In this document: piece by piece, positions 3-10,500 of the stretch
Position numbering within the stretch: position 1 is the stretch's first letter
How the letters are laid out: each line of letters begins with the position of its first letter
Origin: Candidatus Tenebribacter burtonii
Lineage (GTDB): Bacteria; Cloacimonadota; Cloacimonadia; Cloacimonadales; TCS61
Direction: 5' to 3'
DNA length: 60,336 nucleotides
Assembly: GCA_030765625.1 (NCBI GenBank)
Contig: JAVCCF010000076.1
Location: 1-60,336 of the forward strand
The notes under the pieces: generated by a model
Databases searched by the model: none
What the model saw: only the letters and a program-made list of their open reading frames with translations
What the model was told of the DNA's origin: nothing
Translations under genes and position numbers: made by a program

Positions 3-3000
3 TCCGGTGAAAGTCGTAGCGAAGCATTTATCAGAGCCGGTTCTTCCGGTAATCCAACCGGTGCTATTGCAGCAATAGGAACTGCAACCAGCGGTACACA
101 CACGAACTTCAATAACTGTATTGATGCTGGTATATATTATGGAATATTTACTGATGGTATCTATAATCCGGGTGGAGCGGTTAATAGAGGTAAGATTGCT
201 TTGTATGAGCATTATCCTCAAAATCCGGGTGGTTATACAGAGAATTTCACACATATGAATACGCTTATAGGTGATCCTGGTGTTGCGCTCTGGACAGGAG
301 TTCCACAGGATATTATTGCAGATTATGAAACAGAGATCTCTCCTGGAACAAATTATCTTGAAATTCAGGTAGAAAATAGTTCAGGATTTCCAATAGCTGA
401 TGCCTGGGTTACAGCACTGATGGGTGATGATGAAATATTTGCAACCGGATACACAGATGAGAATGGCTATATTGCACTGGAGATCAATGCAATGTTAGAA
501 GGAACAGCTACCCTTACAGTAACAAAACATAATTATATTCCTCACCTTGGTGGATTTGATGTGGGAGAAGTAGATAAATTTATCAATGTATTCGAAGTGA
601 TAATAGATGATGATAACGCAGGAACCTCATCCGGTAATGATGATGGATATATTAATCCGGGTGAAGATATAGAGTTGAGGGTAAGCCTGAAGAACTTTGG
701 TACTCAAACTGCCAACTCAGTTACAGCTACAATTATAACAAACGATGATTTTGTAACGATTACCGATGCAGTAGAAAATTTTGGTAACATTCCATCAGGC
801 AACTCAGTATATTGTACCGATGATTTCGATTTTTCAATTGCTGAAGATGTGTTAGGTGGCACAGAGATCAGATTAGATATTGTAATTGAAGATAATGCCG
901 GAAACACCTGGAACGATATAATTTTCCTTGTTGTAGAAGGCGCTAACCTTGATGCAGCAGATTATGAAGTGCTAGACGGTGGCAACGGAATACTTGATCC
1001 TGGTGAAGTAGTAGAAATGACCGTTTCATTACAGAATTTGGGTAGTGTAACTGCAGATGCAGTTTATGGCGAGTTGACTTCAACTAATAGTCGTATTACA
1101 GTATCTGATGATAATGGATATTTTGGTAATATCATTGCTGGTGAACAAGCATCTAATATAACAGACACATTTGAATTAATTGCAAATACACAACTTGTGG
1201 TTGGAACTCAAGTAATCATGGAAATTCATCTGCATAATACCGATGGATACGATAATACGACTCAGTTTATTCTGAATGTGGGGGAAGTTATAATAACCGA
1301 TCCATTAGGTCCTGATGCATATTCTTATTTTTGTTATGATGATGGTGATCTAAGCTATTTCAATGTACCATCTTATGATTGGATTGAGATAAATAATATT
1401 GGAAGTGATCTTAATTTATATGATCCTGGTAATACCGGTGCTATCGCGACTATTAGTGAATTTCCAATTACCTTTAAAATGTATGGAGAAGAGTATGATA
1501 TAATGACGGTATGCTCTAATGGCTGGATAGCTCCGGGAGGAAGTACCCAAGGTTCATTTATGAACAGTCCTATCCCCGGACCTCAAGGTCCATCACCAAT
1601 GATAGCACCTTTCTGGGATGATTTAAAAACAGGCAGTGGTGATGTTTACTGGCATTACGACTCTTCATTGCATACTGTGATTATTGAATGGGATCATTTG
1701 CAAAATGATCCTAACCAGGAAGAAACATTTCAAGTAATTCTATATGATGCAAACTACTATCCTACATTCACAGGAGATAGTGAGATCAAGTTCCAATACA
1801 AAGTTGTCCATAATACCAGTGCCGGTTCTTATCCATCTCAACATGGACAATATTCCTCAGTTGGGTTAGAAGATCCTAGTGGAACTATTGGATTGGAATA
1901 TACATTTAACAATTCATACCCAATTGCTGCCAAAACTCTACAAAACCAAATGGCACTTCTTTTTACAACTTCTTCACAGTATTGGGGATTTATTGCGGGC
2001 GAAGTTACTTTAATTGGAGGAAGCGGTAACATTGATGAGGTAAATATCACAAATGGAGTCACATATACCAATCCAGATCAAATGGGTGACTACATATATC
2101 CACAGCTTCCTGGAACCTATGATATAACAGCTAGTTTGGTCGGTTATACATCAATTACAGAAAATGACATTGAAGTTATTGAAAATGAGACTACGTTTGT
2201 TGATTTTATATTGGAAGCACTTCCTATCCCAACCGGATTCATCAGTAATGCAATTGAATATAATGATGTGGAATTGACCTGGAATTTACCAGAATCAGTA
2301 AGTAGAGAAACAAATGTAACAGGACATAAAAAACATTCTTCGGAGAATAGCCGAGAACATATTGGTTATAAAGTATACCGCGATGGTACTGAAATTGCAA
2401 CGATTGCTGATCCTGCAATATTAACTTATGCAGATCTTGCACTACCTGCAGGAACTTATAACTATTATGTAACTGCAATTCATGATTTAGGAGAATCGCT
2501 ACCATCCAATCAGGATGAAGTGATGATAAATTTCCCCGCTCCACAAAACCCACAAGCCGTAACACAGGGATTAAATATTTTTGTGACATGGGATGAACCT
2601 GCAACCAGGGAACTTGTGAGTTACAAGGTCTATCGTAACCTGATAATGATAGCTGATGGAATTGAGGTAACTTCCTATCTGGATCCTGAAATGGAAAACG
2701 GAACATATTCTTATAATGTAAGAGCGATTTATAGCGGTGATTATCAATCTAGTTTGTCTATAGATGCTGTCATCGACCATATTCAAACAAATACAGAGGG
2801 TATCCTTATTCCCAAAACAACCTATCTTGAAGGAAACTATCCAAATCCATTTAACCCTGAAACAGTTATAAATTATGCTTTACGTTCTAATTCACAAGTT
2901 CTTATTCAGATATACAATGTTAAGGGTGAAAAGGTTAAAAAGCTTATTGACGGCAAAATAGATGCTGGATTTCATTCCACTGTATGGAATGGAAAAGATA

Positions 3001-3092
3001 ATAATGGGAAAAATGTTGCAAGCGGGATCTATCTTTACCGATTCAAAACTATAGGAATAGATCAAACTAAAAAAATGATGTTAATTAAATAA
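3..3092 (+). CDS. C25 (gingipain-like) family surface protein, C-terminal part, 5' end outside window
   Basis: The reading frame is open from base 3, so the gene begins upstream; the first ATG in the window (codons near 200) is internal. The first ~90 residues match the end of a gingipain-type peptidase C25 domain (segments GESRSEAFIRAG, ATSGTHTNFNN, NTLIGDPGVALWT); the catalytic His/Cys region is not in the window. After this come CARDB-like beta-sandwich segments (NFGTQTANSV near base 700), a domain with an SNGWIAPG motif near base 1510, two fibronectin type III-like domains (about 2230-2770) and a FlgD-like/Por-type sorting domain (NYPNPFNPET near 2838, ending KKMMLIK). It is probably exported and sorted to the cell surface. 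It is a tandem paralogue of the next gene, which starts 11 bases after its stop, but it lacks that gene's dockerin. Family assignment is good; proteolytic activity cannot be judged. Confidence 0.85.
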   Translation, partial: SGESRSEAFIRAGSSGNPTGAIAAIGTATSGTHTNFNNCIDAGIYYGIFTDGIYNPGGAVNRGKIALYEHYPQNPGGYTENFTHMNTLIGDPGVALWTGVPQDIIADYETEISPGTNYLEIQVENSSGFPIADAWVTALMGDDEIFATGYTDENGYIALEINAMLEGTATLTVTKHNYIPHLGGFDVGEVDKFINVFEVIIDDDNAGTSSGNDDGYINPGEDIELRVSLKNFGTQTANSVTATIITNDDFVTITDAVENFGNIPSGNSVYCTDDFDFSIAEDVLGGTEIRLDIVIEDNAGNTWNDIIFLVVEGANLDAADYEVLDGGNGILDPGEVVEMTVSLQNLGSVTADAVYGELTSTNSRITVSDDNGYFGNIIAGEQASNITDTFELIANTQLVVGTQVIMEIHLHNTDGYDNTTQFILNVGEVIITDPLGPDAYSYFCYDDGDLSYFNVPSYDWIEINNIGSDLNLYDPGNTGAIATISEFPITFKMYGEEYDIMTVCSNGWIAPGGSTQGSFMNSPIPGPQGPSPMIAPFWDDLKTGSGDVYWHYDSSLHTVIIEWDHLQNDPNQEETFQVILYDANYYPTFTGDSEIKFQYKVVHNTSAGSYPSQHGQYSSVGLEDPSGTIGLEYTFNNSYPIAAKTLQNQMALLFTTSSQYWGFIAGEVTLIGGSGNIDEVNITNGVTYTNPDQMGDYIYPQLPGTYDITASLVGYTSITENDIEVIENETTFVDFILEALPIPTGFISNAIEYNDVELTWNLPESVSRETNVTGHKKHSSENSREHIGYKVYRDGTEIATIADPAILTYADLALPAGTYNYYVTAIHDLGESLPSNQDEVMINFPAPQNPQAVTQGLNIFVTWDEPATRELVSYKVYRNLIMIADGIEVTSYLDPEMENGTYSYNVRAIYSGDYQSSLSIDAVIDHIQTNTEGILIPKTTYLEGNYPNPFNPETVINYALRSNSQVLIQIYNVKGEKVKKLIDGKIDAGFHSTVWNGKDNNGKNVASGIYLYRFKTIGIDQTKKMMLIK

Positions 3093-3103: not shown

Positions 3104-6100
3104 GTGAAGAGATTTCTTTTATTAACGCTACTGTTATTTACAGTATATTCACTTTTTGGAATATTAGAATATCAAAGATCCGGGGATGGATTGAGAATCA
3201 CTTTTATTAATGATGATAACACAATGGAACAAAATAATATTAAGACAGTAATTGCATTACCATCAAGAAGTATTGATATTATTGTTAATGAATGTGAAAT
3301 AGCTGAATATTCCGATGATGAAGAATTACTTAGAACAATTTCTAGAGGCGGAGAAGATTATATCGAATTACAAAATAGCTTTGTGATGCGAGATTTTTAT
3401 GCTCATCAATTTACTATAAGCAAAACTAAAAATACAGAGGGAATATCCGCTGTGCTAAAGAGTATTGAAATTGAAGTGAGAATGATTGATCCTGTTCAGG
3501 TACCACAAAAGATATCTGCAGCATTTTTACCACTTTATCGTTCTATAGCAGATAACTTTGAAAGATCATATCTTAGAGATGCAACTGTTGCACCATCTAA
3601 AATGCTTATTATAACTCATGATAGCTTATTGGTTAATTTGCAATATCTAACTGATTGGAAAAACCAGAAAGGTATTGAAACACAGGTTGTAACAAAAGAA
3701 GATATTGGCAATACAAGTGATCAAATCAAAGCATACATCCAAAATGTTTATAATACATCAGAAGATCCACCAGATTATATTCTAATTACCGGAGATGTAG
3801 ACGACCTTTTTCAAATTCCTTCTTTCTATATAGTTAGTTCTGGGGGAGACAGTAATGTTACTGATCATCCTTACACTTTATTAGATGGTGATGATTATTT
3901 TCCAGAAATGATCATTGGAAGATTGTCTTTCGATAGTTTGATAGAGTTTCAAACTATTATCGCAAAAATACTATCCTATGAAAAAGAACCTTTCATGGAT
4001 AGTACGCATTGGTTTGAGAATGCTACTTTAGTAGCTGGAAATTACAGTTCTTCTCCACCTTTACCGTCTACTCCTGTAAAAGTTACGAAATGGCTTCGTG
4101 ATAAGATGTATAACTATGGTTATAATGAAATCGATGAGATATATTATCCTCCTAACAATCCGGGAACATCTCTAATAACAGCTTCTATAAATGAAGGTGT
4201 GGGAGTTGTGACTTATCGAGGTTGGGGAGATGCCAATGGCTGGCACTTTCCATATTATCATATTGATAATCTGGAAAATTTGGATAATTATCGTATGTTA
4301 CCTATTATGACATCAATTGTATGTAATACAGGAGATTTTGCAAACACAAATGTTGACCCTTGTTTCGGTGAAGCCTGGTTAAGATTAGGAACTCCTGGGA
4401 ATCCACGAGGTGGAGTAATCTTTATAGGTCCGTCTGATCTGCATACAAGTACAAATTTGAATAATTCAATATTCTCAGGACTCTGGTATGGGGTGCTCAA
4501 TGAAAATAATCTTGCTTTTGGAAGCGCTGTATTACGTGGGAAATATGAGCTTTATGATAATTTCCCATTAGACAGAGAACCGGGTGGTGATGTTGAGTTT
4601 TATTTTAATGTTTATAATATTCTCGGTGATCCTTCATTATCTATCTGGACAACAGTTCCACAGGAAATTTCTTGCACTTTACCTTTGGAAGTTAATGTGG
4701 GAACAAACTTTATTGAGATAGATCTAAACGGAATGGAAGGAGCAATTGTAACAGCTATTAAAGATGATGAATTTTCATCAACTGCTATTGTAGAAAACGG
4801 ATCTGCTCTTATTTACCTTGAGTCATTAACAGCGGGTGAAATTTTACTAACTATTACAAAACCAAATTATTATCCGTTACAACAGACTATTGAAGTAGTC
4901 CAAACTAATGTTGATCTTGGTCTTGAGAATGTTTCTCCGGTAAGTGCAATTGTTGCAGGAGCAACTGTGCAGCTTGACCTTACTTTGAAGAATTTTGGAA
5001 CTCAAACTGCAAACTCAGTTTCAGCAGATCTTACTTCAGATAATAGTAACGTGAATATAATTACGGCTTCTGCTGATTTTGGTGATATTAACGCCGGGGC
5101 TACAGCAATAGAAGGATATGAGATCGAAATAAGTTCTAATTGCCCGAATAATGAAATTATCGAATTTAACCTGTCAATTTCTAATGGCAGTACTTCAAAA
5201 TTCCAAATTATCGTTAGCAGCTTAATTTTTGAATTTGAGAATATTGTTGTGAATGACGAGAATGGTATACTGGAACCGAACGAAGAAAGTGATATTTCAG
5301 TTTCATTCAAGAATATCGGTTCCTTTGATGCAACTTCTCTTACTGCTGAATTGATTGCACTAACTGATGATGTGAATGTAACAACTTCCAATTTTGCTAT
5401 TGGTAATGTTAGCATTGACGAAACAGCAACGGCTGAATTTACAATTCATTCTGTCGAAAACTGTTTTGTTGGAATTAATGTTCCTTTCCAAATAAATATT
5501 TCCGATGCTGATGGACTTACAACAACAATTTATTTTAGCTTGGAAATTGGAGATGTGGATCAGAGGGCACCAACAGGTCCGGATACTTTTGGATACTATG
5601 CTTATGACAGCAATGACCAATTTTATATAAATTGTCCTGAATATGAATGGATTGAAATAGATCCCCAGGAAGGTGGCAGCGGACAGGTTTTTGAATTAGG
5701 TGATGATAGATCAGTTGTAATTCCGATGCCATTCGATTTCCCATTTTATGATGAGATAAGTGACAGTTTGACAATATGTACAAATGGATGGGTATCAATG
5801 TACCCGACTTGGGAAACATATTTTAGAAATTGGAATATTCCTTCTGCTCTGGGTCCCTACGGAATGATAGCTCCATATTGGGATGATCTTATTGGAGAAG
5901 AAATTGGATACGAACAATATGCTGATATGAGGATCTGTTATTACTATGATGAAACTGAAAATATTTTTGTCATTGAGTGGAATGAATGCATTAACAGAAT
6001 CGATATGACATCTATTGAAAAATTCGAAATAATTCTTTATGATCCTGCTTCGTATCCAACTGTAAGTGGTAATGGTGAGATTCAATTTAATTATAAACTG

Positions 6101-7219
6101 GCAAATAATCCAGATTGGAAAAGTAATTATGTAACAGTTGGAATTGAAAATTATAACCAATCTGCAGGATTACTTTATACTTATGCAAATATCTATCCCG
6201 GGAGTGCTTCACCTCTTCAAAATGAATTATCAATAAAATTCACAACTGAGGAACCTGAATTTGCTGCTCCTGTAGTTCCAATTGCAGATTTTACTGCTGA
6301 AAGAACTTATGGTATTGCACCGTATGAAGTAAGTTTTACTAATCTCACATCTCCACCATATTTTTATAATGAATTCATATGGGAATTTGGTGATGATAGT
6401 GCCAATTCTGAAGAGCGTCATCCTGTTCATAATTTCACCGATCCTGGTAGTTATGATATAACTCTTTCTGTTGAGAATTCTGAAGGCTCAGACGAAATCA
6501 CAAAAAGTGGTTATATTAATGTATTCTCAACTGATGGTCTGATCTGGCCTGGAGATACAAATCTTAATGGAATTGTTAGCGTAGAAGATATCTTACAGAT
6601 TGGTATTTATTGGCGTCAGATCGGTAATGCCAGAACAACTATATCTCTTGTCTGGGCAGCTAATGATTATCCCGGTGGATGGAATATTGATGTAGCATCA
6701 TTGGCAGATTGTGATGGTAATGGAGAAGTTAATATTGCTGATGTTTTTGCAATTGGATTAAACTGGGGAGCTACTCATAGTTCAGCTCTGGGCTTGCCAC
6801 CATTCAGCCCGGAAGAATTAGAAGCAAATCGTTCTAATTTTGAAGATATTTACTATTCTCTGGGAAATACAGGAAATGAACTGCTGATAAAAAATTACAT
6901 TGCTCGTGAATTTGATCTGCCAATAATTCAACCAATCGAGATAAATAACTTAAGACAGAATTATCCTAATCCTTTTAATCCTGAAACGAACATTTCCTAC
7001 TCTATTGCAGATAATGGTTCAGTTGAATTATCTATCTACAATATTAAGGGTCAGCTTGTAAAAGAACTCGTGAATTCTTCAATGAATGCAGGTGAACAAA
7101 ATGTTGTATGGAAAGGAAAAGATTCAACTGGTAGGAAAGTAGGTAGTGGATTGTATTTCTATAAATTAAAAGTTAATGGAAAAACAATTGATACAAAAAA
7201 AATGATATTATTGAAATAG
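3104..7219 (+). CDS. C25 (gingipain-like) surface protein with PKD, dockerin and Por-type C-terminal domains
   Basis: A 1371-residue exported protein. The start is GTG, chosen because GGAGG ends 4 bases upstream and the overlapping ATG meets a stop at once. A signal peptide (about 1-19) and propeptide-like region precede a peptidase C25 domain (about 165-530). The nucleophile is visible as Cys407 (SIVCNTGDF), followed by DPCFGEAWLR. The position of the catalytic His, 33 residues upstream as in gingipains, is Trp374 in YRGWGDANGW. Further on are CARDB-like beta-sandwich repeats sharing NFGTQTANSV with the upstream paralogue, a PKD domain (about 1060-1142), a type I dockerin with two calcium loops (D1151-N1153-N1155 to D1162; D1202-D1204-N1206 to D1213), and a FlgD-like sorting domain (about 1284-1371). 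The protein is probably surface-located. Activity is uncertain because of the His to Trp change. The dockerin points to the cohesin-like lipoprotein encoded next. Confidence 0.88.
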   Translation: MKRFLLLTLLLFTVYSLFGILEYQRSGDGLRITFINDDNTMEQNNIKTVIALPSRSIDIIVNECEIAEYSDDEELLRTISRGGEDYIELQNSFVMRDFYAHQFTISKTKNTEGISAVLKSIEIEVRMIDPVQVPQKISAAFLPLYRSIADNFERSYLRDATVAPSKMLIITHDSLLVNLQYLTDWKNQKGIETQVVTKEDIGNTSDQIKAYIQNVYNTSEDPPDYILITGDVDDLFQIPSFYIVSSGGDSNVTDHPYTLLDGDDYFPEMIIGRLSFDSLIEFQTIIAKILSYEKEPFMDSTHWFENATLVAGNYSSSPPLPSTPVKVTKWLRDKMYNYGYNEIDEIYYPPNNPGTSLITASINEGVGVVTYRGWGDANGWHFPYYHIDNLENLDNYRMLPIMTSIVCNTGDFANTNVDPCFGEAWLRLGTPGNPRGGVIFIGPSDLHTSTNLNNSIFSGLWYGVLNENNLAFGSAVLRGKYELYDNFPLDREPGGDVEFYFNVYNILGDPSLSIWTTVPQEISCTLPLEVNVGTNFIEIDLNGMEGAIVTAIKDDEFSSTAIVENGSALIYLESLTAGEILLTITKPNYYPLQQTIEVVQTNVDLGLENVSPVSAIVAGATVQLDLTLKNFGTQTANSVSADLTSDNSNVNIITASADFGDINAGATAIEGYEIEISSNCPNNEIIEFNLSISNGSTSKFQIIVSSLIFEFENIVVNDENGILEPNEESDISVSFKNIGSFDATSLTAELIALTDDVNVTTSNFAIGNVSIDETATAEFTIHSVENCFVGINVPFQINISDADGLTTTIYFSLEIGDVDQRAPTGPDTFGYYAYDSNDQFYINCPEYEWIEIDPQEGGSGQVFELGDDRSVVIPMPFDFPFYDEISDSLTICTNGWVSMYPTWETYFRNWNIPSALGPYGMIAPYWDDLIGEEIGYEQYADMRICYYYDETENIFVIEWNECINRIDMTSIEKFEIILYDPASYPTVSGNGEIQFNYKLANNPDWKSNYVTVGIENYNQSAGLLYTYANIYPGSASPLQNELSIKFTTEEPEFAAPVVPIADFTAERTYGIAPYEVSFTNLTSPPYFYNEFIWEFGDDSANSEERHPVHNFTDPGSYDITLSVENSEGSDEITKSGYINVFSTDGLIWPGDTNLNGIVSVEDILQIGIYWRQIGNARTTISLVWAANDYPGGWNIDVASLADCDGNGEVNIADVFAIGLNWGATHSSALGLPPFSPEELEANRSNFEDIYYSLGNTGNELLIKNYIAREFDLPIIQPIEINNLRQNYPNPFNPETNISYSIADNGSVELSIYNIKGQLVKELVNSSMNAGEQNVVWKGKDSTGRKVGSGLYFYKLKVNGKTIDTKKMILLK

Positions 7220-7235
7220 AAAAATGGAGAATAAA

Positions 7236-7778
7236 ATGTTGAGAACTGTGTTTAATCCTGAATTGCATGGGAAAAGAATACTCTTATTGATAATAATTGC
7301 TGTGATGATATTTTCATTATCCTGCTCAAGTGATTCAACAGAACCGGGAAAAGAAAATCTTAAATTAATGTTTAGTCCGGCAGAACAAACAGTACCGATA
7401 AATACGGAAGTAGAATACGCTATCAGTGTAGAAAATGCTAAGAAATTGTTTGCATTTTCTGCAGAAATTGTATTTGATAATTCAGTAGCTGAATTAGTTC
7501 AAAATGCTGTGGTAGTTGGAGGATTCTGGAATTCCGATCTAATAGAATTGAGCGTTGAAGAAGATGATAGATTAAGTATAGCTATCAGTTTGCAACAGAC
7601 TTCAAATGAAGATGGAATTGATGGTTATGGAGAACTTTTTAGTTTTAGCATTAAAGGCATAGCAATAGGTGAAAGTACACTAACTTTTGAGAATCTGCAA
7701 ATGATCGATGAGAATGGAAATGATGTTTCAAATTTTGATGAACTTGAAGTTACAAACGGGGGAATAATAGTAGAATAA
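7236..7778 (+). CDS. Cohesin-like domain lipoprotein
   Basis: A small predicted lipoprotein (180 residues from this start). An ATG also exists at 7224, but the GGAGA at 7226-7230 is correctly spaced only for 7236. The N-terminus is a hydrophobic stretch ending FSLSC-SSDS, a lipobox-like site though not canonical at -3. The mature part resembles a cohesin domain: SPAEQTVPINTEVEYAISVENAK, FAFSAEIVFDN, a GGFWN turn, a LSIAISLQQT strand, ELFSFSIKGIAIGESTLTF and a closing strand TNGGIIV. Cohesins bind dockerins, and the gene directly upstream encodes a dockerin protein, so the likely role is to anchor that protein to a membrane. pgsB starts 1 base after the stop. The fold call rests on pattern recognition only; a generic bacterial Ig-like domain is the main alternative. 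Confidence 0.68.
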   Translation: MLRTVFNPELHGKRILLLIIIAVMIFSLSCSSDSTEPGKENLKLMFSPAEQTVPINTEVEYAISVENAKKLFAFSAEIVFDNSVAELVQNAVVVGGFWNSDLIELSVEEDDRLSIAISLQQTSNEDGIDGYGELFSFSIKGIAIGESTLTFENLQMIDENGNDVSNFDELEVTNGGIIVE

Positions 7779-7779
7779 T

Positions 7780-8946
7780 ATGTATGGTTTGATAATTGGT
7801 CTGCTGCTATTAATCACTTTTGGAATCTATGAATTCCAGAAATGTAAGATAAGTAGAAAAAAAATTCCCATGATTATTCATGTTAATGGAACAAGAGGTA
7901 AATCCAGCGTTACCCGTCTTATTGCTGCCGGTCTACGTACCGGAGGGAAGAAAACAATTGCCAAGACTACCGGTTCTGCTCCAACCCTGATTTATGAGGA
8001 TGGAAGTGAAACACCGATCATAAGGCATCATGGTGCTAATATCAAGGAACAGGTTAAGATCATTCAATTTGCTGCAAAGAAAAAAATCGATATTCTTGTT
8101 CTTGAGTGTATGGCAGTTACGCCTGAATATCAATGGGTAACAGAGCATGAAATAGTTCAATCTAATATTGGAATTATCACAAATTCCAGATTGGATCATC
8201 TAGATGTTATGGGACCCGGACTTAAAAATGTAACACGCTCTCTTTGCAATACGATTCCCAAACACGGTGTTCTTTTCACTGCTGAAAAGAAAGTTTTTCC
8301 TATTATCCAAAAAGAAGCTGAAAAAGTTCATTGTGAGATCATTCAATCTGAGGATTCAGGAATTTCCAACGAAGATATGCAGGGATTTTCCTATATTGAG
8401 CATAAGGAAAATGTTGCCCTTTCATTGAAGGTTTGTGAGCATTTTGGGATTGATAAAAAAATTGCTTTAGAAGGTATGTATACCGCACAACCGGATATTG
8501 GAGCAATGGAAATTTATAAACACAAAAGTAAGGATAAAGAGCTTCATTTTGTTCATGCTTTTGCAGCTAATGATCCTGAATCTACTGAATTTGTTATCAA
8601 TTCCGTAAAGGAACTTTATCCACATACTCATGCAGTTGTTATTGTGTTAAGTACCAGAGCGGATAGGATATATCGTTCCAAACAGCTAGTCCAAATGCTT
8701 AAAAACGTAGAGTATGATCACCTTTATTTGATCGGTGAACAAACAAATACAATATATTCGTATGCTATGTACAACAAATTAGATAAGAGTAAAATTACTA
8801 ATTGCAGTTGGATAACAGGGCTTAAGTTGACAAATTGTGCGGTAAAATTACCAGCGAAAGAGATACTTATGCTTGGTATTGGTAATATTGGTGGTAATGG
8901 CGGTCTCATAGTAGATTATTATAAAAAAAGGAATAAAAATGTTTGA
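7780..8946 (+). CDS. pgsB: Poly-gamma-glutamate synthase subunit PgsB/CapB
   Basis: A 388-residue member of the PgsB/CapB family, the ATP-dependent amide ligase that polymerises glutamate through its gamma-carboxyl at the cytoplasmic membrane. It has an N-terminal membrane helix (1-17), then the ligase P-loop HVNGTRGKSSVTRLI (about residues 31-45), followed by KTTGSAP and a Mur-ligase-like core (NIGIITNSRLDHLDVMGP). Length is normal for the family. The start lies 1 base behind the lipoprotein stop and the end overlaps pgsC by 8 bases, so translational coupling is likely. The family is well recognised. Polymer chemistry and stereochemistry cannot be read from sequence. Confidence 0.93.
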   Translation: MYGLIIGLLLLITFGIYEFQKCKISRKKIPMIIHVNGTRGKSSVTRLIAAGLRTGGKKTIAKTTGSAPTLIYEDGSETPIIRHHGANIKEQVKIIQFAAKKKIDILVLECMAVTPEYQWVTEHEIVQSNIGIITNSRLDHLDVMGPGLKNVTRSLCNTIPKHGVLFTAEKKVFPIIQKEAEKVHCEIIQSEDSGISNEDMQGFSYIEHKENVALSLKVCEHFGIDKKIALEGMYTAQPDIGAMEIYKHKSKDKELHFVHAFAANDPESTEFVINSVKELYPHTHAVVIVLSTRADRIYRSKQLVQMLKNVEYDHLYLIGEQTNTIYSYAMYNKLDKSKITNCSWITGLKLTNCAVKLPAKEILMLGIGNIGGNGGLIVDYYKKRNKNV

Positions 8947-9388
8947 AGTTGCAATTGGTTTAGGAGTATTGATAAGTTTGTTCTTTTTGGAGACATTTGG
9001 AGCAGCAGCAGGTGGAATTGTGGTTTCCGGTTATGTTGCAATGCATTTACATCAGCCTATCACAATCTTAGCAACATTATCAATTAGTATTATCGTATTT
9101 ATCATAGTTAAATTTATTGGAAAGTTCATGTTTATTTACGGTAGAAGACGAATGGTAATAACCGTTCTTCTTGGATTCATCATTGGTTGGATGGCTAGAT
9201 ATTATGGTATTTTTGCCAATCTGTCGTCTAGCTATTCTGTAAATGTAATTGGATTTATTATCCCTGGACTTATTGCTAATGCAATGGAAAAACAAGGCAT
9301 TATTAAAACACTTTCTGTCATGGTTGTAGCAGCCGTGATAGTACGGTTTTTATTAGTATTGATATTTGGTGGAGAAATCATAGGATAA
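8939..9388 (+). CDS. pgsC: Poly-gamma-glutamate biosynthesis membrane protein PgsC/CapC
   Basis: A 149-residue integral membrane protein with four to five hydrophobic segments. It opens with FEVAIGLGVLISLFFLETFGAAAGGIVVSGYVAMHL, matching the typical PgsC N-terminus (large Gly/Ala-rich helix with GGIVVPGY-like motif). PgsC is the small partner of PgsB in the membrane synthase complex. It overlaps pgsB by 8 bases and is followed 8 bases later by pgsW, with GGAG before the latter. The combination PgsB-PgsC-PgsW, without a PgsA/CapA-type phosphoesterase-fold protein in the window, is the arrangement known from several diderm lineages. Confidence 0.9.
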   Translation: MFEVAIGLGVLISLFFLETFGAAAGGIVVSGYVAMHLHQPITILATLSISIIVFIIVKFIGKFMFIYGRRRMVITVLLGFIIGWMARYYGIFANLSSSYSVNVIGFIIPGLIANAMEKQGIIKTLSVMVVAAVIVRFLLVLIFGGEIIG

Positions 9389-9396
9389 GGAGAATT

Positions 9397-10500
9397 ATGT
9401 TTATTCCAAGTGCAAAATCAAAATTAAGTTTGATTTTATTGATGCTTGTTGCAATAATATTATTTATATGGGTAGAAAATTCACGAGTTTTTATTAGTGA
9501 TAAATATTATGAAGAGAAGTTAGCAGCAGCAAAATTGATGCAAAGAGCTGAATTGGCTATAAAGGAATATCGAAATTCAGAAGGTATTTATATTGATGAA
9601 GTGAACGATCCAAACATGACTGCAATGATCGGTGATAAACAATCTCCAATTGTTACAGATCGTGGTGATCTAACTTCCAAATTAACAAGTTTGAATCCAA
9701 ATTTTGCAGCAATTATTGTAGAGATGTTCAAAGAAGCAAATTTAAAAAAGGGTGATAAGATCGCAATTAGCTATACAGGTTCTTTTCCAGCATTGAATAT
9801 TGCCGTTTTAAGCGCTGCACAAGTTTTGGAATTGGATCCCATTATCATATCATCGGTCGGGGCTTCAATGTTTGGAGCAACAGATCCTGAATTTACCTGG
9901 CTTGATATGGAAGATTTTTTTATCCAAAAAAATATATTTGAATATAAAAGTATAGCATCTTCTATTGGGGGTGGACGTGATCTTGGAAGGGGATTGAGTA
10001 AAATCGGACGTGAATTGATCATAGAAAATATTAATAAGCATAACATTCAATTAGTTCATACAGAAACGCTGGAGCAGAATATACTACGAAAAATGAAAAT
10101 TTATGAAGCTTTCAGTAAAAATAATATTGCACTTTATATAAATATTGGAGGTGGGCTTTCTAGTATAGGGGCTACTGTAAACGGAAGATTAATTGACCCT
10201 GGTTTACATCGGTATCTAACATTAACCAATGTACCTCTTAAAGGCACTATGTTGCTTTATGCAGATGAAGGAATTCCTGTTATTCATTTGTTAGACATCA
10301 CCAAACTTGCAGAAGAGAATAAACTTCCACTTGCTCCTGATCCTCTCCCTGAACCTGGAAACGGAAGTATGTTCTTAGATGAAAAGTACAATTTGACAGT
10401 TGCAGCCATTTCTTTTGCAATATTGTTTATTTTAATATTAATTGTTATCTTTTTTGATCATAAAGAATTAAGAATAAAGGATGATGAGATTAATGTTTAG
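9397..10500 (+). CDS. pgsW: Poly-gamma-glutamate system protein PgsW
   Basis: A 367-residue protein with one N-terminal membrane anchor (about 7-25), a periplasmic domain, and a C-terminal membrane helix (about 331-352). Recognisable PgsW-family segments are VTDRGDLTSKLTSLNPNFAAIIVEMFKEA, KKGDKIAISYTGSFPALNIAVLSAAQ, SIGGGRDLGRGLSKIGRELI and INIGGGLSSIGA. The function is not established experimentally to my knowledge; family members always travel with pgsB and pgsC, so a part in synthesis or export of poly-gamma-glutamate is inferred. Its last 20 bases overlap the next gene. Confidence 0.85.
   Translation: MFIPSAKSKLSLILLMLVAIILFIWVENSRVFISDKYYEEKLAAAKLMQRAELAIKEYRNSEGIYIDEVNDPNMTAMIGDKQSPIVTDRGDLTSKLTSLNPNFAAIIVEMFKEANLKKGDKIAISYTGSFPALNIAVLSAAQVLELDPIIISSVGASMFGATDPEFTWLDMEDFFIQKNIFEYKSIASSIGGGRDLGRGLSKIGRELIIENINKHNIQLVHTETLEQNILRKMKIYEAFSKNNIALYINIGGGLSSIGATVNGRLIDPGLHRYLTLTNVPLKGTMLLYADEGIPVIHLLDITKLAEENKLPLAPDPLPEPGNGSMFLDEKYNLTVAAISFAILFILILIVIFFDHKELRIKDDEINV

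What the first reader, a model, noticed from the sequence alone, without database searches (positions are those of the whole stretch)
6540..7778. Dockerin-bearing C25 surface protein next to a cohesin-like lipoprotein: possible surface anchoring pair
The sequence shows two canonical calcium loops of a type I dockerin near the C-terminus of the C25 protein (D1151 to D1162 and D1202 to D1213). The gene after it, 16 bases away, encodes a small lipoprotein whose single domain resembles a cohesin. Cohesin-dockerin pairs are best known from cellulosomes; here the pair would tether a peptidase-like protein, not a glycoside hydrolase. The same protein also has a Por-type sorting domain, so it may have two attachment routes. 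That the two partners bind each other is inference.
Basis: partly seen in the sequence, partly recalled or inferred. Interest (0 to 1): 0.85.

Follow-up and report, generated by a model that had tools for sequence, protein, structure and literature searches.

The report
Paired dockerin protein and cohesin lipoprotein
In uncultured Cloacimonadota bacteria, secreted surface proteins ending in an unusual dockerin 'plug' are almost always encoded next to a small lipoprotein carrying the matching cohesin 'socket', which suggests a dedicated two-part system for holding chosen exported proteins on the cell surface.

Summary
The lipoprotein (7224/7236-7778) is a cohesin by predicted fold: pLDDT 87, and the 50 best PDB matches are all cohesins. 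Several relatives pass Pfam's cohesin cut-off. The C25 protein (3104-7219) carries a divergent dockerin-like module. Its two Ca loops are canonical, but they lie 51 residues apart, around an insert, and helices follow that belong to the same 136-aa domain.

Across 125 Cloacimonadota genomes this module has 35 hits, and 30 have the cohesin gene just downstream on the same strand. Three of the five exceptions lie near contig ends, and one lies two genes away in the same run. The pair recurs behind unrelated passengers: C25, C10 peptidase, an ~800-aa protein, a PKD/beta-helix protein. All scanned carry a type IX sorting tail, and the own genome encodes SprA.

Most likely the module plugs into a dedicated lipid-anchored cohesin: a 1:1 surface tether rather than a cellulosome. 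Binding itself is untested. The C25 passenger lacks the gingipain catalytic His (Trp in all 15 orthologues), so it is probably a pseudopeptidase. New variant of a known kind.

The parts
3104..7219 (+). C25-family (gingipain-like) secreted protein carrying the dockerin module; 1371 aa
   Evidence: PF01364 223 bits, PF03785, CARDB, PKD_4, Por_Secre_tail; phmmer to gingipain R 1cvr E=1.2e-41
3602..4642 (+). C25 catalytic-like domain (residues 167-513); Trp374 at the position of the gingipain catalytic His, Cys407 kept
   Evidence: alignment to 1cvr, 4ief and 4rbm; W and C in all 15 orthologues
6536..6943 (+). Extended dockerin-like module (residues 1145-1280): two F-hand loops, insert, C-terminal helices; predicted as one compact domain
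   Evidence: AF2 pLDDT 94.5, pTM 0.89; PF00404 in 30 of 31 members; alignments A3 and A5
6554..6589 (+). Calcium loop 1 (D1151-D1162)
   Evidence: sequence; conserved in all aligned members
6614..6682 (+). Conserved insert between the loops (approx. residues 1171-1193; consensus YWRxxGxxRxxxSFxWxxNDYP)
   Evidence: alignment A3: G29, R32 and W39 invariant
6707..6742 (+). Calcium loop 2 (D1202-D1213)
   Evidence: sequence; conserved
6809..6913 (+). Helical extension that belongs to the dockerin module (approx. residues 1236-1270)
   Evidence: AF2 helices H92-97, H99-108, H113-126 with high confidence
6962..7207 (+). T9SS type A sorting domain (Por_Secre_tail, residues 1287-1368)
   Evidence: PF18962 29.6 bits, TIGR04183 37.5 bits, both over cut-off
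7224..7778 (+). Cohesin lipoprotein, 184 aa (probable start at ATG 7236, with GGAG upstream)
   Evidence: 25-member family; AF2 plus Foldseek: 50 of 50 top PDB hits are cohesins
7323..7325 (+). Predicted lipidated Cys34 of the lipoprotein, invariant in 25 of 25 members
   Evidence: alignment A1
7359..7775 (+). Cohesin domain (residues 46-184)
   Evidence: AF2 strands E47-E183; closest PDB 2xdh, Foldseek E=9.6e-12
7780..10500 (+). pgsB, pgsC and a poly-gamma-glutamate system protein, in the same tight gene run directly after the pair (context)
   Evidence: TIGR04012 427 bits, TIGR04011 128 bits, TIGR04332 328 bits; pgs genes follow the C25-type pair in relatives

Best explanation
A dedicated 1:1 surface tether. 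The C25-like protein is exported by the type IX system through its C-terminal tail. Just before that tail lies an extended dockerin module. The next gene makes a lipoprotein whose one folded domain is a cohesin. The cohesin, held in the outer membrane by its lipid, binds the dockerin module and so keeps the exported protein on the cell. If the tail is clipped off after export, as in known T9SS sorting, the module becomes the new C-terminus and the cohesin replaces or backs up covalent anchoring. The module plus its cohesin gene is a portable cassette, used behind several unrelated passengers. Shown here: both folds or families, the gene pairing, the passenger swapping, and T9SS genes in the genome. 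Inferred: binding, calcium dependence, outer-leaflet location, tail clipping.
For: Fold: lipoprotein AF2 pLDDT 87.1; the 50 best PDB matches are all cohesins, best the non-cellulosomal Archaeoglobus cohesin 2xdh at E=9.6e-12. Family profile against PDB: 9 of 12 hits are cohesin or scaffoldin chains, the best two at E=0.003 and 0.009. PF00963 over cut-off in relatives L049, L050, L057 and L124. Dockerin: PF00404 in 30 of 31 modules, over cut-off in L061, L134, L135 and L136. Pairing: 30 of 35 module hits in 125 genomes have the cohesin within 2.5 kb downstream on the same strand; genome co-occurrence 29 both, 3 and 3 single, 90 neither. Of 12 module hits outside the family used to build the models, 9 are paired, although those genomes contributed nothing to the models. 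Same pairing with C25, C10/I69, ~800-aa, PKD and beta-helix passengers. The own genome has exactly two modules and two such cohesins, each adjacent, although it has some 45 T9SS-type tails. SprA and PorU-like genes present. In some relatives an Ig, PKD or similar spacer sits between lipid and cohesin, as expected of a tether.
Against: No binding was measured, and no complex was modelled (the tool gives neither interface scores nor coordinates). The module's best fold match to solved dockerins is weak (Foldseek E=0.19, prob 0.92). Conservation of the inferred cohesin binding face is not significantly higher than that of the other face (p=0.29). The lipobox is loose (SLSC). The genomes are related, so co-occurrence counts are not independent events. 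One module without a cohesin next to it (G119) is unexplained.
Confidence: 0.74

Rival explanations
1. The pair is real and binds, but on the periplasmic side: the cohesin lipoprotein is an export helper that holds or escorts its T9SS substrate before transport, not a surface anchor.
For: Each cohesin is dedicated to one adjacent T9SS substrate, as many export helpers are. Leaflet of the lipoprotein is unknown.
Against: The fold is a cohesin, whose known members act outside the cell (general knowledge). Spacer domains between lipid and cohesin in L048, L054, L057 and L124 suit a reaching tether better than a chaperone. Some 45 other T9SS-type tails in the genome have no such partner.
Confidence: 0.1
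2. The dockerin module is one of many clients of a larger cellulosome-like complex; the small lipoprotein is a general cell-surface socket for several dockerin proteins, and adjacency is only operon convenience.
For: A multi-cohesin scaffoldin with dockerin-bearing C25, S8, GH18 and GH57 proteins was inferred in the Cloacimonadota genus Ca. Stygibacter (PMC8542988). The own genome has another cohesin/dockerin-like cluster on contig C96.
Against: Module and lipoprotein numbers match one to one, and each copy is beside its own partner even where a genome has two pairs (G000, G003). Each lipoprotein has one cohesin. No GH passengers were seen.
Confidence: 0.1
3. The domains are cohesin-like and dockerin-like by fold only and do not bind each other; they sit together for regulatory or historical reasons.
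For: Binding is untested; the binding-face conservation test was inconclusive; the dockerin module is strongly modified.
Against: The two-gene unit stays together while the passenger changes completely. Both halves belong to the two families best known for binding each other.
Confidence: 0.06

Closest known systems
Cohesin-bearing anchoring scaffoldins of cellulosomes (e.g. ScaE of Ruminococcus flavefaciens, sortase-anchored; review PMC12484212)
   Same: A cell-attached protein with a cohesin that holds a dockerin-bearing protein on the surface. ScaE also binds a putative cysteine peptidase through an X-dockerin.
   Different: Here the anchor is a predicted lipid in a Gram-negative-type envelope, the client is a T9SS substrate, the pair is encoded side by side 1:1, and no glycoside hydrolases are involved.
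Cellulosome-like complex inferred in Ca. Stygibacter (Cloacimonadota; PMC8542988)
   Same: Same phylum; dockerin-bearing C25 gingipain-like protein; a T9SS-type C-terminal domain; poly-gamma-glutamate genes in the same organisms.
   Different: There a 3,755-aa scaffoldin with many cohesins and CBMs gathers enzymes. Here one lipoprotein with one cohesin is paired with one neighbour; the passages read of that paper do not mention a cohesin lipoprotein.
Non-cellulosomal cohesin of Archaeoglobus fulgidus (PDB 2xdh)
   Same: Best fold match to the lipoprotein's cohesin (Foldseek E=9.6e-12, TMt 0.80).
   Different: 18% identity; different organism and context.
X-dockerin (type II) of CipA (PDB 3kcp, 2b59)
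   Same: Best, though weak, fold match to the dockerin module; also a dockerin with extra structure attached.
   Different: Here the added structure is an insert between the loops and helices after them, not an upstream X module. E=0.19 only.

Membership tests
Cohesin (PF00963) | Profile match over the curated cut-off | tested here: inconclusive
   Window protein: no match at E<=1. Family members L049 26.5, L050 25.9, L057 28.1 and L124 29.9 bits pass the 24.1 cut-off.
Cohesin (PF00963) | Cohesin beta-sandwich fold | tested here: met
   AF2 pLDDT 87; 50 of 50 top Foldseek PDB hits are cohesins.
Cohesin (PF00963) | Binds a dockerin | not testable with these tools
   Only genetic pairing.
Dockerin type I (PF00404) | Two DxNDxDG-type calcium loops, each followed by a helix | tested here: met
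   Loops at 1151 and 1202; helices after each in the model.
Dockerin type I (PF00404) | About 34 residues between loop starts, domain about 60-70 aa | tested here: not met
   51 residues (50-51 in all members); one 136-aa domain. Solved dockerin 2y3n_B: 34.
Dockerin type I (PF00404) | Profile match over cut-off | tested here: inconclusive
   Window module 17.6 bits against 22.9; relatives L061 24.1, L134 24.8, L135 27.1 and L136 34.3 pass.
Cellulosome | Scaffoldin with several cohesins | tested here: not met
   One cohesin per lipoprotein in the aligned members.
Cellulosome | Dockerin-bearing glycoside hydrolases | tested here: not met
   Scanned passengers are C25, C10, CotH, PKD, beta-helix or unassigned.
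T9SS type A substrate | C-terminal Por_Secre_tail | tested here: met
   TIGR04183 37.5 bits against cut-off 23.
T9SS type A substrate | T9SS machinery in the same genome | tested here: met
   SprA_N 65.6 bits on C131, over cut-off; PorU-like proteins on C46 and C86, below the PorU equivalog cut-off. Other components were not searched.
Active C25 peptidase | Catalytic His-Cys dyad | tested here: not met
   Trp374 at the His position, Cys407 kept; same in all 15 orthologues.
Bacterial lipoprotein | Signal peptide with lipobox Cys | tested here: inconclusive
   Cys34 invariant in 25 of 25 after a hydrophobic stretch; lipobox SLSC is loose; LPAM_1 matches in 2 of 25.

The most novel reading that the evidence does not exclude
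Cloacimonadota use a portable, one-to-one cohesin-dockerin cassette (an extended 136-aa dockerin class plus a lipid-anchored cohesin encoded next door) as a non-covalent surface-retention route for selected type IX secretion substrates, including a catalytically dead C25 protein built into the poly-gamma-glutamate operon.
Probability: 0.55. Interest if true: 0.75.

Novelty: new variant of a known kind. Interest (0 to 1): 0.64.

Why it matters
Cohesin-dockerin pairs are among the strongest known protein-protein contacts but are mostly understood as cellulosome parts. A dedicated, operon-encoded 1:1 version serving the type IX secretion system would show a different use: a plug and socket for retaining chosen exported proteins on a Gram-negative-type surface. 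It would offer a new orthogonal binding pair with an unusual dockerin, make surface retention of T9SS substrates testable with two small purified domains, and give a function to a family of lipoproteins that Pfam and NCBIfam do not recognise in the window's own copy.

Tried and rejected
Pfam Dockerin_1 search of the own genome found nothing: a limit of the profile, since relatives pass it. Direct phmmer of the lipoprotein against PDB gave only noise; the family profile was needed. Conservation of the inferred cohesin 8-3-6-5 face against the other face: no significant difference (p=0.29, strand parity guessed). Distance correlation of dockerin and cohesin (Mantel r 0.86, 0 of 2000 permutations) is not proof of contact, because linked genes share history. 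I prepared a read-through fusion alignment (stop codon read as Gln, A4) to model the complex in one chain, but did not spend the last fold job on it: the output has no interface score or coordinates, and the sorting tail lies between the domains. I used the job on the dockerin module alone. Chagasin-like matches (PF09394, sub-threshold, 6 of 25 members) were considered, as they would make the lipoprotein a peptidase inhibitor. Rejected because the scores are below cut-off, the fold search returns cohesins only, and the passenger is usually not an active cysteine peptidase. A first script with a wrong loop pattern and an alignment call with a wrong interval were redone.

Full report
WHAT IS THERE. 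The window (contig G000:C158) belongs to a Cloacimonadota genome; the closest named records are Candidatus Cloacimonadota MAGs. Reading + strand: the end of a C25-related protein with a type IX (T9SS) tail (3-3092), a 1371-aa C25 protein (3104-7219), a small lipoprotein (7224-7778), then pgsB, pgsC and a third poly-gamma-glutamate system protein (7780-10500). The genes are a few bases apart, and the terminator scan found nothing between C25, lipoprotein and pgsB. The lipoprotein has two in-frame ATGs.

THE LIPOPROTEIN IS A COHESIN. On its own it has no Pfam or NCBIfam match worth the name, and phmmer against PDB gives noise. It belongs to a family: 27 of 40 genomes of its taxonomic family gave a match at a permissive cut-off of E<=0.1, and I aligned 25 members. 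Twelve of the 25 show PF00963 at E<=1, and L049, L050 and L057 pass the curated cut-off, as does L124, found later. A family profile against PDB finds mainly cohesins (best E=0.003). The AlphaFold2 model is confident (pLDDT 87.1, pTM 0.72), and the 50 best PDB matches are cohesins without exception, led by 2xdh at E=9.6e-12.

THE DOCKERIN IS REAL BUT UNUSUAL. The two loops are at the stated residues. In all members the loop starts are 50-51 residues apart, against 34 in the solved dockerin 2y3n_B. The insert is conserved (G29, R32 and W39 of alignment A3 are invariant). The conserved module runs on for about 50 residues beyond the loops, and AlphaFold2 folds 136 residues as one domain with extra C-terminal helices (pLDDT 94.5, pTM 0.89). 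PF00404 matches 30 of 31 modules at E<=0.01 and passes its cut-off in L061, L134, L135 and L136. Foldseek ranks type II X-dockerins of CipA first, but weakly (E=0.19, prob 0.92). I read it as a new, extended dockerin class rather than an ordinary type I dockerin.

THE PAIRING. I built one profile from the modules and one from the lipoproteins and searched 125 genomes of the phylum with each. Of 35 module hits, 30 have a lipoprotein hit within 2.5 kb downstream on the same strand. The exceptions: G011 (module near one contig end, cohesin near the end of another), G122 C110 (module gene ends near the contig end), G100 (a truncated lipoprotein-like gene starts right after and runs off the contig), G025 (same gene run, two genes between), and G119 (unexplained). 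By genome, 29 have both, 3 only the module, 3 only a strong cohesin, 90 neither. Relatedness inflates any p-value here. Two facts reduce that worry. First, 12 of the module hits lie outside the family from which the profiles were built, and 9 of them are paired. Second, the cassette sits behind unrelated passengers: C25, an ~800-aa protein without a catalytic match (L043, L047, L055, L056; L047 and L055 scanned), C10 peptidase with an I69 inhibitor domain (L124), PKD proteins (L126, L134) and a PKD/beta-helix protein (L132). A CotH-kinase protein (L061) carries the module in the same gene run as a more distant cohesin. The own genome has exactly two modules and two such cohesins, each pair adjacent, although some 45 of its proteins end in a T9SS-type tail.

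HOW IT PROBABLY WORKS. The genome encodes SprA (65.6 bits, over cut-off) and PorU-like proteins (below the equivalog cut-off), so the tail should be functional. The module lies directly before the tail. From general knowledge of T9SS, the tail is often removed after export; the module would then be the new C-terminus. A lipid-anchored cohesin could hold it. Some lipoproteins carry a Big_7, PKD, CarboxypepD_reg-like or HYDIN-like spacer between lipid and cohesin, which fits a tether of adjustable reach. Steps not shown: binding, calcium dependence, location of the lipoprotein in the outer leaflet, tail removal.

THE PASSENGER. The C25 domain aligns with gingipain R (E=1.2e-41), but the catalytic His position is Trp374; Cys407 is kept (which residues are catalytic in gingipain is from general knowledge). 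All 15 orthologues have Trp and Cys at these places. It is probably a pseudopeptidase with a binding role. In most of the loci whose downstream sequence is held, a lipoprotein of this family next to a C25 protein is followed by pgsB. A role at the poly-gamma-glutamate capsule is an open lead.

PRIOR ART. A cellulosome-like complex with dockerin-bearing C25, S8, GH18 and GH57 proteins and a large multi-cohesin scaffoldin was inferred for Ca. Stygibacter in the same phylum (PMC8542988). ScaE of R. flavefaciens is a surface-anchoring cohesin protein and binds a cysteine peptidase through an X-dockerin (PMC12484212). Cohesin/dockerin proteins have also been proposed as adhesins in syntrophic sulfate reducers (PMC10553843). 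In the searches made here (open-licence papers only) I found no report of a 1:1 cohesin lipoprotein paired with a T9SS dockerin protein. The verdict is a new variant of a known kind, with strong genomic support and untested binding.

Noticed in passing
window 3602-4642: The C25 domain lacks the gingipain catalytic His (Trp374 instead) but keeps Cys407; identical in all 15 orthologues, so a conserved pseudopeptidase. The neighbouring C25 paralogue in L039 has Tyr there; the C25 protein after the second pair type in L043 has His and Cys.
   Followed up: partly
window 3104-10500: The C25/cohesin pair is a regular neighbour of the poly-gamma-glutamate synthase genes pgsB-pgsC in relatives; a role in anchoring or organising that polymer is untested.
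   Followed up: partly
L059 (G023:C138): A divergent cohesin-like lipoprotein sits between two clostripain-family (C11) proteins that carry a different, N-terminal pair of EF-hand/dockerin-like repeats: possibly an independent instance of the same principle.
   Followed up: partly
L060 (G000:C96, 1-4412): Own genome: a cluster of T9SS-tailed and other proteins with cohesin (PF00963 over cut-off in the ORF 1417-2145) and dockerin-like repeats, not related to the window pair.
   Followed up: partly
L047 (G000:C162): Second complete pair in the same genome: 810-aa T9SS protein with the same module, followed by its own cohesin lipoprotein and two large T9SS proteins.
   Followed up: yes
L058 (G039:C50:3840-4079): A fragment of a second cohesin gene with an internal stop, apparently a decaying copy.
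   Followed up: no
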